A program made the position numbers and the translations under genes. From Thermoleophilaceae bacterium (GTDB taxonomy: Bacteria; Actinomycetota; Thermoleophilia; Solirubrobacterales; Thermoleophilaceae), in NCBI GenBank assembly GCA_030446485.1, contig JAUJNF010000001.1:477964-541963 (forward strand): a stretch of 64,000 bases of DNA, written 5' to 3'. Every line of letters begins with the position of its first letter. Position 1 is the stretch's first letter. The notes beneath the pieces were generated by a model, which worked only from the letters and a program-made list of their open reading frames with translations, made no database searches and was not told the DNA's origin. This document shows, one piece after another, positions 29-55,060 of the stretch.

Positions 29-70
29 CTCACACGCGAGAGGTCGCAGGTTCGAAACCCGCCGCGCCCA
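29..70 (+). other. 3' half of tRNA-Val (CAC), candidate attachment-site remnant
   Basis: From the anticodon loop onward this reads as a tRNA: loop CTCACAC with anticodon CAC and U33, 3' anticodon stem GCGAG, variable loop AGGTC, T arm with TTCGAAA, acceptor strand CGCGCCC and discriminator A. The spacing from anticodon to T loop is exactly canonical. The 5' strand of the anticodon stem (CTCGC expected) is absent, and no D arm precedes it, so this is not a complete tRNA. One T-stem pair is also mismatched. A bare 3' half beginning in the anticodon loop is typical of the distal att copy left when an element integrates into a tRNA gene. In that case the element lies to the left, outside the window. 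That last step is inference. Confidence 0.6.
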
Positions 71-199
71 TGAAGACGGCCACCGAATCCGATCGAAAGG
101 CGCGGTCGCCGTTCAATCCGATGAGTGCTTGTGACCGAGGCAGGGTTTGGACACGGGTACAGCCCCGATATGAGGTCCTCGGGGAGAAGGAGTTTGTCG

Positions 200-1142: not shown

Positions 1143-2177
1143 CTAACGCTTGGTCAGCGTGTCCCGCAGCGCCTCTAGGCCGGTGTAGGAGGGCGTCCAG
1201 CCCAGCTCGCGCTTGGCCTTGGCGGCGTCCATGATCGACGGATGGCTGATCGCTTCGGCCCACTCACCCGCCGGGGGAACGAACGGGGGCGTCGGAAGCG
1301 CGGCGATGGCCCGACCCGCGCGCTGGACAACGCCGCCCGGAACCGGAAACGCCGTCAGCCCCAGCTCGCGCGCCACCTCGGCGGCGGTCACCAGGCCGTC
1401 AGCGGCGATGTTGTAGGCGCCGGGAGCACCAGCGCCGACGATGCACAGCAGGAACGCCTGACCCACGTCGTCCTCATGGATGAGCTGCACCGGCAGCGCG
1501 GGCGCCGGCACCGGCGGCCCGACGGGCAGGCGGTCGAGCAGTCTCGCTGCGCCGCGGGCCAGCGGCACGAGCGCGGCGAGCGGGCCGGGGAGCACGTTCT
1601 TGGCGCCCACGGCGTGCGGGCCGAGCACGATCGGAGGGCGCAGGAGGTAGAGCCCGAGCTCGGGATGGCGCTCCGCCTCGCCCGTGAGAAGCTCTTCGAG
1701 CTCGGCCTTCTCCTGCGCGTAGAAGAGGTGCTTGGCCGGGCGGGTCGGCCACTCCTCGGTAAGCGGCACGGGGTTGTCGGGATGAAAGCCGTACGCGGCG
1801 ACCGACGAGGCGTAGACGAAGCGCTTGGCCCCCGCTGCGGCTGCCGCGCGGAACGTGTTGAGCGTGCCGTCGACGTTGATCGCGCGGATCGTGTCGCGCG
1901 GCGCCGTGCCGGTGATCAGAAACGCCAGATGCACGACGACGTCGGCGCCCGCGAAGGCCTCCTCCAGCGCCGAGGGATCGCGCACGTCGCCTCGGCGGTA
2001 TTCCATCTTGGTCCAGCCGTGCGACGCCGGGTCGAACTCGCGCCGCGCGATGCCGACGATGCGCTTGATGCGCGGGTCGGCCTCCAGCAGCGGGATCAGC
2101 CCGAAGCCGAACGTCCCGGTCGGGCCGGTGACGGCCACCGTCAGAGGCTTGGCGCGGGGCTTCTTTGCGCGAGACAC
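1143..2177 (-). CDS. NAD-dependent epimerase/dehydratase (extended SDR)
   Basis: The 344-residue product has the extended short-chain dehydrogenase layout. A Rossmann nucleotide-binding loop TGPTGTFG lies near the N terminus, DVRD follows strand 3, and an active-site YAQEK (YxxxK) sits around residue 170 after the VYASSVAAYG strand. Substrate cannot be read from the sequence; NAD(P)-dependent sugar-nucleotide or steroid-like substrates are typical of the family. I chose the GTG at 2177 because AGGGAGG lies 6-7 nt upstream; the ORF track begins 9 codons earlier at another GTG. It is divergent from the aldehyde dehydrogenase gene across about 160 bases, which likely hold both promoters. Confidence 0.85.
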   Translation of the reverse strand: MSRAKKPRAKPLTVAVTGPTGTFGFGLIPLLEADPRIKRIVGIARREFDPASHGWTKMEYRRGDVRDPSALEEAFAGADVVVHLAFLITGTAPRDTIRAINVDGTLNTFRAAAAAGAKRFVYASSVAAYGFHPDNPVPLTEEWPTRPAKHLFYAQEKAELEELLTGEAERHPELGLYLLRPPIVLGPHAVGAKNVLPGPLAALVPLARGAARLLDRLPVGPPVPAPALPVQLIHEDDVGQAFLLCIVGAGAPGAYNIAADGLVTAAEVARELGLTAFPVPGGVVQRAGRAIAALPTPPFVPPAGEWAEAISHPSIMDAAKAKRELGWTPSYTGLEALRDTLTKR

Positions 2178-2336
2178 GAAAGCCTCCCTACCCGGATGGG
2201 ACACCGTTGCAACAGAAGGGAAGGCGCACCAGCACGGTGCGCGCGAACGCCCTCAGCCTCCGCGTGCGAGCAACCTGCGCGCCATCCGTTCCCGCGGCGT
2301 ATCGTCGCCGAACGCCACGAATCAAAGGAGCACGGA

Positions 2337-3800
2337 ATGTCGACCATCGAGCACGACACCAAGACGGGTTCCGCAGACACCGCTGCCATCGAGGAGCTGC
2401 ACGAGATCGTCGACCGCCAGCGCGCCGCGTTCCTGGCCGACCCGTTCCCCTCCCTCGACGAGCGACGGGCACTCCTCGCCGCGCTGGCGGGCATGGTGAT
2501 GAGCAATCGCACGCAGATCGAGGAGGCGATGAGCGCCGACTTCGGCGTCCATCCGACGCTCGCCACCGACCTGATCGAGGTGCTGGGCGTGGCGGGCCGC
2601 GCCGCGTACGTCGCGGAGCAGCTCGAAGGCTGGATGGCGCCCGAACCCCGCTACTCCGACCCAACGCTGTACGGCACCGGCCGCGCGTTCGTGCAGCCTC
2701 AGCCGAAGGGCGTCGTGGGCAACATCAGCCCCTGGAACTTCCCGTTCGACCTATCCGTCGGTCCGCTCACCGAGATGCTGGCCGCGGGCAACCGCGTGGT
2801 GCTCAAGCCCTCCGAGCACACCCCGGCGTGCTCGGAGGTGCTGCGGGACATGATCCGAGCGACGTTCGATCGCGACCGCGTGGACGTGGCCGTGGGCGGT
2901 CTCGAGCTGGCCAAGGCCTTCACCCGCGTGCGCTGGGACCACCTGCTCTACACGGGCAGCCCCGAGATCGGGCGCCAGATCGCGATGACGGCAGCCGAGC
3001 AGCTCGTGCCCGTGACGCTGGAGCTGGGCGGCAAGTGCCCGGCCATCCTCACCGACGACTCGATCGACGCCGAGTCGGTCAAGCAGGTGCTGGGGACCAA
3101 GGCGCTCAAGAACGGGCAGATGTGCATCTCGGTGGACTACTGCCTCGTGCCGAGAGAGCGCATGGACGACTTCGCCCGCCTGGCCGTCGAGCACGTGCGC
3201 GAGAACATGCCCGACTTCTACTCGTCGGAGAACAACACCGGCATCATCACCAACCGCCACCTCGAGCGGATCCAGAACCTGATCGAGGACGCCCAGGAGC
3301 GCGGCTGCGAGGTGCGACCGCTCGAAGAGGGCGGCGAGATCGACCCCGACACGCGTCAGCTGCCGATGTCGATCGTGCTCGATCCGCCCGACGACCTCGC
3401 CCTCATGCAGGAGGAGATCTTCGGCCCGATCCTGCCGGTGAAGGCCTACGACGAGATCGACGAGGCGATCGGGCACGTGAACGCCGGCGAGCGCCCGCTC
3501 GCGCTGTACGTGTTCTCGAAGGACGAGCAGGTGGCCGACGACGTGCTGCGGCGCACGACCTCAGGGGGAGCATGCGTGAATGCCGCGGCCGTGCACGGCG
3601 CTCTGCCGTCACTGCCCTTCGGCGGCATTGGGGAGAGCGGATCGGGCCGCCATCACGGCATCGAAGGCTTCCGCGAGTTCTCGAATCTGCGCGGGGTCTT
3701 CGTGCGCGGAGAAGGGGACCTGATCGAGGCCTTCGCGCCGCCCTACGGCGACACCGCTCAGGCAGTGGTGGGCGCGGCGTTCGAGGAGGCGGGCGGCTAG
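2337..3800 (+). CDS. Coniferyl-aldehyde-type aldehyde dehydrogenase
   Basis: The 487-residue protein is a full-length aldehyde dehydrogenase that oxidises an aldehyde to the acid with NAD(P)+. The active-site Glu is in VTLELGGKCP, the catalytic Cys is in NGQMCIS, EEIFGPILPV follows, and the C terminus has PFGGIGESGSGRHHG. These segments match the coniferyl aldehyde dehydrogenase branch, so aromatic or fatty aldehydes are plausible substrates, but this is not proven. AAAGGAG precedes the ATG by 6 nt, which sets the start; the ORF track extends about 1.1 kb further upstream only as the antisense shadow of the SDR gene. The last ~450 bases are repeated in decayed form at 4.4-4.7 kb. Confidence 0.92.
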   Translation: MSTIEHDTKTGSADTAAIEELHEIVDRQRAAFLADPFPSLDERRALLAALAGMVMSNRTQIEEAMSADFGVHPTLATDLIEVLGVAGRAAYVAEQLEGWMAPEPRYSDPTLYGTGRAFVQPQPKGVVGNISPWNFPFDLSVGPLTEMLAAGNRVVLKPSEHTPACSEVLRDMIRATFDRDRVDVAVGGLELAKAFTRVRWDHLLYTGSPEIGRQIAMTAAEQLVPVTLELGGKCPAILTDDSIDAESVKQVLGTKALKNGQMCISVDYCLVPRERMDDFARLAVEHVRENMPDFYSSENNTGIITNRHLERIQNLIEDAQERGCEVRPLEEGGEIDPDTRQLPMSIVLDPPDDLALMQEEIFGPILPVKAYDEIDEAIGHVNAGERPLALYVFSKDEQVADDVLRRTTSGGACVNAAAVHGALPSLPFGGIGESGSGRHHGIEGFREFSNLRGVFVRGEGDLIEAFAPPYGDTAQAVVGAAFEEAGG

Positions 3801-3830
3801 GGCTCGTCGCGCTCGGCCACAGCGCTCGAC

Positions 3831-3857
3831 GCGCCGCGCGATGTCGTCGCGCGGCGC
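3831..3857. terminator. Strong hairpin between convergent genes
   Basis: GCGCCGCGCGA, a TGTCG loop, then TCGCGCGGCGC form a perfect 11-bp stem. It sits 30 bases after the aldehyde dehydrogenase stop and 7 bases from the stop of the opposing gene, so it can serve both strands. There is no U tract, as is common in high-GC actinobacteria. Confidence 0.7.
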
Positions 3858-3863
3858 GCGCGG

Positions 3864-4196
3864 CTAGCTAGTCCGCACCCATACGACGTCCTTGGGACCG
3901 TCGCACCGCGGGACCCGACGAGCTCCGTCGAAGATCTCGTACATGGCGCCCCAGAAACCGACGGAGTCGCTGAAGCGGAGTGGCCAGCGGTACCCGTACC
4001 GACAGTCCGGACGCGACCGGAGCCGGAAGTAGACGACGAGCTCCGGGTTGTCGGCCGGCCCCTCCACCGCCAAGGAGTCCGCGTGGTCCCGGACCAGATG
4101 ATCCCGTGCGACTTCGCGCAGGAACTTCCGCTTGCCCTCGTCCAGCCCGCCGCCGGTCTCTGCGACCCAACGGTCGATCCAATCGGGTTCCGGCAT
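3864..4196 (-). CDS. Hypothetical protein, 110 aa
   Basis: The reading frame begins at MPEPDWIDRWV and runs to GPKDVVWVRTS. The protein is soluble and mixed-charge, with no signal peptide, membrane segment or recognised domain. The start is the ATG at 4196; the longer ORF reads back through a rhomboid gene remnant in a meaningless frame. A decayed second copy, with many small insertions and deletions, lies at about 4.67-5.2 kb behind the intact rhomboid gene. The original order was therefore probably rhomboid then this gene, as an operon. Function unknown. Confidence 0.6.
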   Translation of the reverse strand: MPEPDWIDRWVAETGGGLDEGKRKFLREVARDHLVRDHADSLAVEGPADNPELVVYFRLRSRPDCRYGYRWPLRFSDSVGFWGAMYEIFDGARRVPRCDGPKDVVWVRTS

Positions 4197-4204
4197 GCCG
4201 TCTG

Positions 4205-4412
4205 CCGTCAGCGCTCTGAATCCGCGTCCCGCCGCCGCGCCAGCAGACGCGCCGCCACCACGCCACCGATCGCTCCGAAGAGGTGCCCCTGCCACGAGAT
4301 CCCCTCCTGGGGCGCGAGACCGGCCCGCCGAGCTCCGCCCCCGAGCGGGCCGAGCACCACGCCGAGCGCAGGCTCGCGGCTGCCGGGGTGGCCGATCCCA
4401 CGGCTGAGGCGA
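4205..4412 (-). pseudogene. Rhomboid protease 3' fragment (duplicated copy)
   Basis: Aligns by eye with 5300-5495, the 3' part of the intact rhomboid gene, sharing for example GATCGCTCCGAAGAGGTGCC and ATCCCCTCCTGGGGC. It encodes the last rhomboid segment (GHLFGAIGG-like) and its C-terminal tail. It is cut abruptly near 4410, where sequence matching the aldehyde dehydrogenase gene begins. This is the expected break of a tandem duplication. Confidence 0.65.
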
Positions 4413-5215
4413 TATCAATCCCGACACGCGTCAGCTGCCGATGTCGATCGTGCTCGACGGCCCTCGACGCGGCCCGATCGCTCAGGCAGTGAAGGCGACG
4501 CGCTCGACGAGGCGATCGGGCACGTGAACGCGCGGCGCGCGCGGTGTTCAGCTAGTGTTGCGGCGCACGACCTCGCACGCATGCCGCAGCCGTGCACGCA
4601 TGCCGTCACTGCCCTTCGGCGGCATCAGGGAGAGCGGATCGAGCTGGCCGCCATCGCGGCGCGCTTCCGCGAGCTCCGTCGAAGAGTGTTCGTCTCGTAC
4701 ATGACGCGCCCTAGGACCGCTCACTGTCGGGCAGCTCGTCGCGCTGAGTTCGCGCGCCCTCTCGTCGGCATCGCTTCGTACATGGCACGACGCCTTCATG
4801 ACGCCCCGACGGAGTCCCCGGAAGCTCCAGCGCGGCACGCGCCAGCGGTATCCCCCGTGGGGTTGTACCGACACCTTCATGGACGCGACCGAGCCTGGGA
4901 AGTAGACGACGAGGTGATCGCCCGTTTCTGTCGGCCGGCCCCTCCACCGCTCAAGGAGTCCGCATCGAGGACGCGACCAGATGATCCCGTGCGACTTCCC
5001 GGGGGATGATGCGGCAGGGGGAGTCGCGCACGGTGGCCGGGTTCTTCAGGGTCAGCCCTCTCGTCCAGCCCGCCGCCGGTCTCTGCGGACCCAACGTCGA
5101 TCCAACTCCACGGGTTCCGGCATGCCGTCTGCCGTCGCTTGCGGTCGCGTCGTTGTCCGCGACCGGACGCCGTCAGCAGACGCGACCGCCACCGCGCTGA
5201 GCTTCAACCCGTGGA
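4413..5215 (+). repeat. Decayed duplicate of the aldehyde dehydrogenase 3' end plus the 110-aa gene
   Basis: This stretch follows 3350-4230 in order. CCGACACGCGTCAGCTGCCG, GAGGCGATCGGGCACGTGAA, GTCACTGCCCTTCGGCGGCAT, GAGCTCCGTCGAAGA, CGGCCGGCCCCTCCACCGC, AGATGATCCCGTGCGACTTC and GGTTCCGGCATGCCGTCTGC all recur. Between them are many small deletions and insertions, so no ORF survives. Together with the preceding rhomboid fragment it forms one ~1 kb tandem duplication unit. No functional gene is supported here. Confidence 0.75.
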
Positions 5216-5254
5216 AGAGAATCCGGCCACGTTGATGGGCGCCCGCCTCAGCGC

Positions 5255-5923
5255 CTAGACCAGGCTGGGCGGCCGATCCTGACCGCGGCCACCGATCGGG
5301 GGTCTGGGGACGGCGCCCCCCCGCCGCGCCCGCACACGCCCCGCCACCACGCCCCCGATCGCTCCGAAGAGGTGCCCCGGCCACGCGATCCCCTCCTGGG
5401 GCTCGAGACCCGCCAGCAGAGCTCCGCCCCCGAGAAGGCCGACCACCACGCCGATCGCAATCTCCACGAAGCCGCGGTTGAAGATCCCACGGCTGATGAG
5501 GTAAGTGGCGTAGCCGAACACCACTCCGCTCGCGCCGATGTGGATCGTCGACTCGGGGCTGATCACCCAGGTGCCGAGCCCACCGACCACGGCGACCACC
5601 GCGGTGACGGCAAGCACGCGCAGTGCCCCGCCGAGCGCGATCACGAAGCCCAGCACCAGGAAGGGGACGGTGTTGGCCACGAGGTGACCGAAGCCGGCGT
5701 GCAGGAATGGGGCCGCCACGACGCCCACCAGGCCGTCTGCGTCGCGGGGCTCGATCCCGTACTGGTCGAGCCGGCCGCCGGCGACCGAGTCGGCGATCTC
5801 GAGCACCCACATGAGGGTTACCATTGCGGCCACGAGCCACAGGCCCCGCCGTCGTCCCGCTCGCGAGGACGACTGCCCGGACACGGCCCCAGGCAGTAGG
5901 GCTCTCTCGACCTGGGCGCTCAC
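5255..5923 (-). CDS. Rhomboid family intramembrane serine protease
   Basis: The ~222-residue protein has several hydrophobic segments: one near residue 25, then HAGFGHLVANTVPFLVLG and further transmembrane helices. The rhomboid catalytic serine is in HIGASGVVFGY (GxSG), and the catalytic histidine is in the later helix at GHLFGAIGG. It cleaves substrate proteins within the membrane; the substrate is unknown. The start is uncertain. I used GTG at 5923 (VSAQVERA), since the much longer ORF is the antisense of the TIM44 gene. It is divergent from that gene. Its 3' half has a truncated duplicate at 4.2 kb. Confidence 0.8.
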   Translation of the reverse strand: MSAQVERALLPGAVSGQSSSRAGRRRGLWLVAAMVTLMWVLEIADSVAGGRLDQYGIEPRDADGLVGVVAAPFLHAGFGHLVANTVPFLVLGFVIALGGALRVLAVTAVVAVVGGLGTWVISPESTIHIGASGVVFGYATYLISRGIFNRGFVEIAIGVVVGLLGGGALLAGLEPQEGIAWPGHLFGAIGGVVAGRVRARRGGAVPRPPIGGRGQDRPPSLV

Positions 5924-51198: not shown

Positions 51199-52116
51199 AT
51201 GCTCGATGTGCGACGCCTGCGCCTGCTGGTCGAGCTCTCCGAGCGAGGGACGATCAGCGCCGTGGCGGACGCCCTGCACTTCACGCCGTCCACCGTCTCG
51301 CACGCCCTCTCGTCGCTCGAGCAAGAGATCGGCGTCGCACTGCTGGAGCGCACCCCTCGCAGCGTGCGGCTCACTCCCGCGGGGGACGCGCTCGTCGCCG
51401 AGGGCCGCAAGATCATCGCGAGCCTCAACGCCGCCTGCACCGACGCGAGGGCCGTCGGAGGCCTCGACCGCGGACGGATCACCATCGCGACGTTCCCGAG
51501 CGCCGGCTCCACCCTGGTGGCGGCAGCGGTCGCTCGGCTGCAGGAGCGGCACACTCGAATTCAGATCCGGCTCATCGACGCCGAGCCCGAGGAGAGCCTG
51601 CGCGCGCTTCAGGCGGGCGATGTGGACGTTGCGGTGGTCTACGAATACGGCTTCGCGCCGCCAATCCATACCGATCTCGCCCACACCGCTCTGCGAGAGA
51701 TCCGATGCAGCTCTGCCCGCCTGCGGATCACGGCAGCGCCGGCGGGGACGCATTGCCGCTGGCCACCTTGCGCACGAGTGCGTTCGTCGCAGGACGCCCA
51801 GGCTCACCGTGTCGCTGACTTCACCGTGGCGGCGTGCGCTCGCGCGGGCTTCGAGCCCCGCATCGCCTACCAGACCGACGACATCGCTTTCACCTGCGCG
51901 CTCGTGCGCGGCGGCTTCGCCGCCGCGATCATTGCGGAGTCCTGCTCGCCACGGCGCCGGCGCCCGTGATGACCTACGCGCCCACGCCCCCTCCCTCCGC
52001 GCAAGATCCTCGCAGCCCACCGGCCGTCCGCCGCTCGTCTCATGTCAGTCGTCGCGACCCTGGACGCCCTGAAGGAGGCGGCGAGCAGCAACAGCCGCTG
52101 GCTCACCGCCGCGTAG
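51199..52116 (+). pseudogene. LysR family transcriptional regulator, several frameshifts
   Basis: N-terminal HTH (MLDVRRLRLLVELSERGTISAVADALHFTPSTVSHALSSLEQEIGVALLERTPRSVRLTPAG) and the start of the effector domain are in one frame to about 51690. The following stretch reads correctly only in the next frame (DPMQLCPPADHGSAGGDALPLATLRTSAF), then frame returns at about 51815 (FTVAACARAGFEPRIAYQTDDIAFTCALVRGGFAAAIIAE). Two further shifts are needed near 51945 and 51990 to reach ILAAHRPSAARLMSVVATLDALKEAASSN.RWLTAA* at 52116. The 3' end is duplicated at 54.78 kb. Confidence 0.78.
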
Positions 52117-52206
52117 TAGGGCCCTCGCCGTCTCAACCCGCCGGACAGACCAACCTCTGTAGACACCCGCCAGCCGCATCGACCGACTCGCGGAAGACCC
52201 GGATGT
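51939..52206 (+). repeat. Direct repeat copy 1 (LysR 3' end plus chlorite-dismutase 3' tail)
   Basis: From CCTGCTCGCCACGGCGCCGGCG to GACTCGCGGAAGACCCGGATGT this matches 54779-55052 with roughly 90% or more identity by eye. It holds the LysR C terminus, its stop, and an antisense tail equal to the last codons of a chlorite-dismutase-family gene. Confidence 0.8.
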
Positions 52207-54644: not shown

Positions 54645-54778
54645 ACTCTCAGTCTATGCCTGCCTCCACGTCCACACGAGGAGGTGCAACGTAGAGGTCA
54701 TTGAGCAATGCAAGCTTCTCACGACTGCGAGCTCCTCCTCGGCGACAGGCCGAACGGTCACGTCGGTCCAGGCGTCGC

Positions 54779-55060
54779 GGGTCCTGCTCGCCACGGCGCC
54801 GGCGCCCGTGATGACGTACGCGCCCCGCCGCCCCTCCCTCCGCGCAAGATCCTCGCAGCGCACCGGCCGTCCGCCGCTCGTCTCATGTCAGTCGTCGCGG
54901 CCCTGGACGCCCTGAAGGAGGCGGCGAGCAGCAACAGGCGCTGGCTCACCGCCGCGTAGTAGGGCGCTCGCCGCCTCAACGCAGCGGACAGACCAACCTC
55001 TGTGGACACCCCCTAGCCGCATCGACCGACTCGCGGAAGACCCGAATGTCGATGTCGCGC
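54779..55060 (+). repeat. Direct repeat copy 2 (LysR 3' end and chlorite-dismutase tail)
   Basis: Diverged copy of 51939-52206. It contains the last ~60 codons of LysR in one frame (KILAAHRPSAARLMSVVAALDALKEAASSN.RWLTAA*), ending at 54959, and about 45 bases antisense to the end of the chlorite-dismutase gene. The 32 bases before it match 50236-50270, so the segment is a mosaic of local pieces. Confidence 0.8.
54780..54959 (+). pseudogene. LysR 3' fragment (truncated copy)
   Basis: Only the last ~58 residues of LysR remain (LLATAPAPVMTYAP..., KILAAHRPSAARLMSVVAALDALKEAASSN). There is no HTH or start codon of its own. Confidence 0.7.

What the first reader, a model, noticed from the sequence alone, without database searches (positions are those of the whole stretch)
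3340..5500. Decayed ~1 kb tandem duplication across three genes
The order ALDH 3' - 110-aa gene - rhomboid 3' | ALDH 3' - 110-aa gene - rhomboid is what one tandem duplication gives. The junction (about 4410) joins the rhomboid gene to the aldehyde dehydrogenase gene. The second set of ALDH and 110-aa sequences has many scattered small indels, so it is an unusually indel-rich decay or a mis-joined low-quality stretch.
Basis: seen in the sequence. Interest (0 to 1): 0.6.

Follow-up and report, generated by a model that had tools for sequence, protein, structure and literature searches.

The report
Garbled false duplication from genome assembly
A roughly 1.1-kb stretch that looks like a decayed second copy of three neighbouring genes is, on the evidence, most likely not bacterial DNA but a scrambled, falsely duplicated piece left by genome assembly.

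Summary
Window 3333-4411 (ALDH 3' end, 110-aa gene, rhomboid 3' end) recurs at about 4408-5500, with the junction at 4408-4411. The second copy is far from a clean repeat: 81 indel events against 49 substitutions over about 970 bp.

The "tandem duplication then decay" reading does not hold well. (1) Aligned to 33 rhomboid relatives, copy 2 is native up to one switch point and copy 1 is native after it; the other copy is broken at near-invariant residues on each side. Joining the flanks across 1089 bp gives a better rhomboid (290.6 vs 273.6 bits). (2) In the indel-free rhomboid overlap, 25 of 28 changes are transversions, 19 are A/T to G/C and none is G/C to A/T, the reverse of bacterial mutation. 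(3) Source pieces are interleaved out of order. (4) It is the only such locus in 1.28 Mb scanned. (5) A 100-N scaffold gap lies 4.3 kb away, and two other local duplications in the contig sit at places that look like joins.

Best reading: a false duplication from an error-filled read or gap fill, between about 4298-4313 and 5387-5402. No reads were available, so this is inferred, not proven. Interest is low.

The parts
2337..3800 (+). Intact aldehyde dehydrogenase gene (487 aa)
   Evidence: Pfam PF00171, E 3.7e-76, residues 9-452
3864..4196 (-). Intact 110-aa ORF with no relative found (ATG at 4196)
   Evidence: Open frame; no Pfam or NCBIfam match; none in 40 related genomes or in the genome-contig scan
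4208..4313 (-). Native 3' end of the rhomboid gene (GISWQGHLFGAIGGVVAARLLARRRDADSER-stop)
   Evidence: Carries the near-invariant S (33/33), Q (32/33), A (29/32), L (30/32) of the relatives where the other copy has A, P, G, R
4314..4411 (-). Corrupted copy of rhomboid sequence (no indels, 20 substitutions, broken at near-invariant residues); start of the suspect tract
4408..5312 (.). Scrambled second copy of ALDH 3' end and 110-aa gene: exact islands of 10-38 nt separated by about 81 indels, some islands out of order
5313..5386 (-). Corrupted copy of the rhomboid 3' end (8 substitutions, no indels); end of the suspect tract
5387..5923 (-). Native 5' and central part of the rhomboid gene; 5387-5402 is the 16-nt block identical to 4298-4313, so the exact join cannot be placed inside it
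   Evidence: PF01694 E 1.5e-22 for the ORF as given; relatives 54-69% identical; flank join scores 290.6 against 273.6 bits as given

Best explanation
The 1089 bp between about 4298-4313 and 5387-5402 are an assembly artefact of the false-duplication kind. The real locus is inferred to be ALDH - 110-aa gene - rhomboid, each once, in unbroken order. During assembly or gap closing of this metagenome-assembled genome, a poor-quality representation of the sequence next to the rhomboid join (ALDH 3' end, 110-aa gene, rhomboid 3' end) was placed between two good pieces that already abut. Partial correction against real reads may have produced the islands of exact identity, leaving uncorrected stretches between them. 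Shown: the duplication, its reciprocal native/broken structure, its non-biological error spectrum and its interleaving. Inferred: that it is an assembly product. Not determinable here: the read type and the software.
For: (a) Rhomboid profile of 33 relatives: of the 14 differing residues before the switch point, 13 favour copy 2 and one is a tie; all 7 differing domain residues after it (down to 4228) favour copy 1. Chance is about 1e-5 if each copy decayed independently of position (one search gives 2.6e-5 for a 14/6 split). Joining the flanks across exactly 1089 bp, a multiple of 3, keeps the frame, restores ISWQ and AARLL, ends at a natural stop and scores 290.6 against 273.6 bits. (b) Of 28 substitutions in the indel-free rhomboid overlap, 25 are transversions, 19 A/T>G/C and 0 G/C>A/T, although the native sequence is 71% GC. 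Bacterial mutation, Actinobacteria included, is AT-biased and led by G/C>A/T transitions (PMC2936535). (c) 81 indels against 49 substitutions, with deletions crowded in the first part and insertions in the last. (d) Interleaving: 4670-4703 comes from 3919-3945, 4734-4745 from 3802-3813, then 4776-4786 again from 3937-3947. (e) Unique in 1.28 Mb: 11 distinct offsets in one chain against at most 5 elsewhere, those in a region of period-105 repeats. (f) The assembly is scaffolded, with 100-N gaps at C15:477864-477963 (ending at the base before the window), C9:159986-160085 and C20:70436-70535. Flye is one assembler that writes 100 Ns and has made a scaffolding error at chimeric reads (PMC7500977). 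(g) Error-laden reads and incorrect gap filling are documented causes of false duplications (PMC9516828).
Against: No reads, coverage or assembly graph could be examined. There are no Ns at this locus. The error pattern (10-20 nt indels, substitutions towards G/C) is not that of any single sequencing technology I can name. Parts of the tract (e.g. 5024-5059, 5194-5239) match nothing convincingly in their own genome, so their source is unexplained. The two comparison places at 183 and 361 kb are themselves only inferred to be joins.
Confidence: 0.86

Rival explanations
1. A real 1.09-kb tandem duplication whose redundant parts have since decayed: rhomboid piece in copy 1, ALDH and 110-aa pieces in copy 2.
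For: Gene order is exactly what one tandem duplication gives; the offset is 1089 along the rhomboid overlap; ALDH and the 110-aa gene are intact in copy 1.
Against: Copy 1's rhomboid fragment is useless along its whole length yet keeps a perfect family tail while its upstream half is broken, and the full-length copy 2 has lost invariant residues exactly there. The substitution spectrum is the reverse of bacterial mutation (PMC2936535). The ALDH/110-aa part has more indel events than substitutions while the rhomboid part has about 15% substitutions and no indel, though both would be equally old.
Confidence: 0.06
2. A false duplication from strain variation: two diverged but real alleles of the locus stitched one after the other.
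For: Two other local duplications in the same contig look like joins at strain-variable places: C15:360962-361096, which ends at a single N, and C15:183037-183312 / 183736-184017.
Against: Those two have closely similar copies with few indels. Here the second copy is scrambled and broken at invariant residues, so it cannot be a working allele.
Confidence: 0.05
3. A real complex rearrangement: error-prone replication with repeated template switching copied short local pieces into a new 1.1-kb stretch.
For: The tract is built of short exact pieces of the immediate neighbourhood, some out of order, and one jump (3677 to 3919) falls on a short shared CGAG.
Against: Nearly all pieces are on one strand: 14 bases covered by inverted 14-mers against 320 direct. 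It gives no reason for the A/T>G/C transversions or for the precise 1089-bp offset on both rhomboid sides. It is unique in 1.28 Mb.
Confidence: 0.03

Closest known systems
False ('homotype') duplications in long-read assemblies, caused by error-laden reads or incorrect gap filling (PMC9516828)
   Same: Adjacent duplicate of the same genes, one clean and one error-rich; other scaffold gaps in the same assembly
   Different: Described in vertebrate assemblies and recognised there by read depth and k-mers, which could not be examined here
Flye scaffolding error at chimeric reads, with 100 Ns inserted (PMC7500977)
   Same: Runs of exactly 100 N in three scaffolds of this genome, one 4.3 kb from the tract
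   Different: No Ns at the tract itself; the assembler of this genome is unknown and other tools may write 100 Ns too
Tandem gene duplication followed by pseudogene decay
   Same: Gene order
   Different: Substitution spectrum, indel excess and reciprocal rhomboid pattern do not fit

Membership tests
Assembly false duplication | One copy error-rich relative to the other, not explained by neutral decay | tested here: met
   81 indels; 25/28 transversions, none G/C>A/T in the indel-free part
Assembly false duplication | Leaving the tract out gives a normal locus | tested here: met
   Flank join gives a 208-aa rhomboid with the near-invariant residues, 290.6 against 273.6 bits
Assembly false duplication | Scaffold joins or gaps in the neighbourhood | tested here: inconclusive
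   100-N gap 4.3 kb away and further 100-N gaps in other scaffolds, but no N between the two copies
Assembly false duplication | Low or absent read depth, or discordant reads, in the duplicate | not testable with these tools
   No reads available
Real tandem duplication with decay | Decay in the redundant copy only, spread along its length | tested here: not met
   Decay switches copy at 4298-4313 / 5387-5402
Real tandem duplication with decay | Mutation spectrum of a bacterium (transitions, towards A/T) | tested here: not met
   3 transitions of 28; 19 A/T>G/C, 0 G/C>A/T (PMC2936535)
Real tandem duplication with decay | Same duplication in a close relative | not testable with these tools
   No relative of the same genus among the 40 searched; no relative found shares the gene order

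The most novel reading that the evidence does not exclude
A real, recent local rearrangement in which an error-prone copying process rebuilt a 1.1-kb stretch from short neighbouring pieces, with an unusual A/T-to-G/C transversion spectrum.
Probability: 0.03. Interest if true: 0.6.

Novelty: not a real feature. Interest (0 to 1): 0.08.

Why it matters
Read at face value it would give a false pseudogene cluster, a false tandem duplication and a mis-annotated rhomboid with a wrong C-terminus in the only sampled genome of its genus among those searched. The test used here (profile scoring of each copy against relatives, plus the substitution spectrum) can expose such tracts without reads.

Tried and rejected
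Mobile or plasmid-borne element: no match in plasmids at the 'distant' setting. Origin of the unmatched inserts elsewhere in the genome: only weak, chance-level hits. Sequencing phasing, where a wrong base equals its neighbour: 8 of 28 equal the previous base and 12 of 28 the next, no clear signal. A mutT-like spectrum (A:T>C:G): covers many changes but not the C/G swaps or the indels, and would not be local (reasoned from general knowledge, not tested). Synteny in relatives: rhomboid found in many; ALDH, 110-aa, epimerase and Tim44-like neighbours in none of the held stretches. The 110-aa gene as a marker: no relatives found. OPERA-MS as the assembler: some relatives carry 'opera_contig' names, but nothing ties this genome to it.

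Full report
OBSERVATION. The window is G000:C15:477964-541963, in a 2.6-Mb, 27-contig genome, 76% complete. Its nearest named relatives by the rhomboid gene are Thermoleophilaceae and Solirubrobacterales metagenome-assembled genomes. The repeated order ALDH 3' - 110-aa - rhomboid 3' | ALDH 3' - 110-aa - rhomboid is real in the sequence as given and far above chance. The ALDH gene (2337-3800), the 110-aa ORF (3864-4196) and the rhomboid gene (starting at 5923, minus strand) each have one readable copy.

WHICH COPY IS NATIVE. I aligned both rhomboid pieces with 33 related rhomboids and scored each differing residue against the family. From 4411 to 4315 (equivalent to 5500-5404) copy 2 is the native one: it has L, F, R, V, L, L at near-invariant sites where copy 1 has R, G, P, L, R, R. 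From 4297 to 4228 (equivalent to 5386-5317) copy 1 is native: S, Q, A, L where copy 2 has A, P, G, R. The switch lies inside a 16-nt identical block, 4298-4313 / 5387-5402. So 1089 bp between these points are foreign to the gene. Joining the flanks there keeps the frame and gives a canonical 208-aa rhomboid with a higher family score (290.6 against 273.6 bits). Under duplication and decay, copy 1's fragment would be free to decay everywhere and copy 2's tail would be the protected one; the opposite is seen for the tail.

HOW THE TRACT DIFFERS. In the indel-free rhomboid parts, taking the native copy as the starting state, there are 28 substitutions: 25 transversions, 19 A/T>G/C, 8 G/C swaps, 1 A>T and no G/C>A/T. 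Bacterial mutation, including in Actinobacteria, is AT-biased and dominated by G/C>A/T transitions (PMC2936535). In the ALDH and 110-aa parts there are 81 indel events against 49 substitutions. Deletions crowd into the first part (3333-3930: 40 deletions, 10 insertions) and insertions into the last (4120-4302: 1 deletion, 13 insertions). Pieces of the source are interleaved: 4670-4703 matches 3919-3945, then 4734-4745 matches 3802-3813, then 4776-4786 matches 3937-3947 again. The local pieces are almost all in direct orientation. Some stretches (e.g. 5024-5059, 5194-5239) have no convincing source in the genome.

SURROUNDINGS. A scan of 1.28 Mb in four contigs for chained local repeats finds no second case: this locus has 11 distinct offsets in one chain; the next have at most 5 and lie in a region of period-105 repeats in C9. 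The assembly is scaffolded: runs of exactly 100 N at C15:477864-477963, C9:159986-160085 and C20:70436-70535. The first of these ends at the base before the window and lies 4.3 kb from the tract. Flye is one assembler known to write 100 Ns and to have made a scaffolding error at chimeric reads (PMC7500977); the assembler used here is unknown. Two further local duplications in C15 look like joins: 135 bp of an acyltransferase-like 3' end at 360962-361096 that stops at a single N, 2.2 kb from the full gene, and a copy of an ETF-quinone-oxidoreductase-like 3' end at 183037-183312 against 183736-184017 (265 of 285 columns identical, nearly all of the first 240), where one copy is frameshifted. Those gene names rest on my reading of the translations.

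EXPLANATION. A false duplication fits all of this: a poor-quality version of the sequence next to the rhomboid join was inserted between two good pieces that abut. Error-laden reads and incorrect gap filling are documented causes of such duplications (PMC9516828). The islands of exact identity may be stretches that later correction repaired; this step is conjecture. No reads were available, so I put the artefact reading at 0.86, with 0.05 for a strain-stitching artefact, 0.06 for a real decayed duplication and 0.03 for a real complex rearrangement.

VERDICT. Observation confirmed; not a biological feature on present evidence; interest low.

Noticed in passing
window 30-71; G000:C15:461972-462043 and 463770-463815: The 3' half of a tRNA-Val gene (intact at C15:461972-462043) recurs at C15:463770 and again at the window's start, as attachment sites of an integrated element would; the 16-kb stretch between contains the 100-N gap.
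   Followed up: partly
G000:C15:183037-184017: About 240-bp, near-identical direct duplication of a 3' gene end 700 bp apart, one copy frameshifted, with a truncated unrelated ORF between; looks like another join.
   Followed up: partly
G000:C15:360962-361097: 135-bp copy of an acyltransferase-like 3' end that stops at a single N, 2.2 kb from the full gene.
   Followed up: partly
window 3864-4196 (-): 110-aa ORF without any detected relative in Pfam, NCBIfam, 40 related genomes or the genome contigs pattern scan.
   Followed up: partly
window 51886-52206 and 54714-55049: About 320-bp imperfect direct repeat 2.84 kb apart (294 of 342 alignment columns identical).
   Followed up: no
G000:C9:151142-154631: Array of period-105 repeats with diverged copies, about 5 kb from a 100-N gap.
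   Followed up: no
window 1179-1269 (+): ARAGORN calls a tRNA-Ala inside the epimerase-like gene (1143-2204, minus strand); probably a false call.
   Followed up: no
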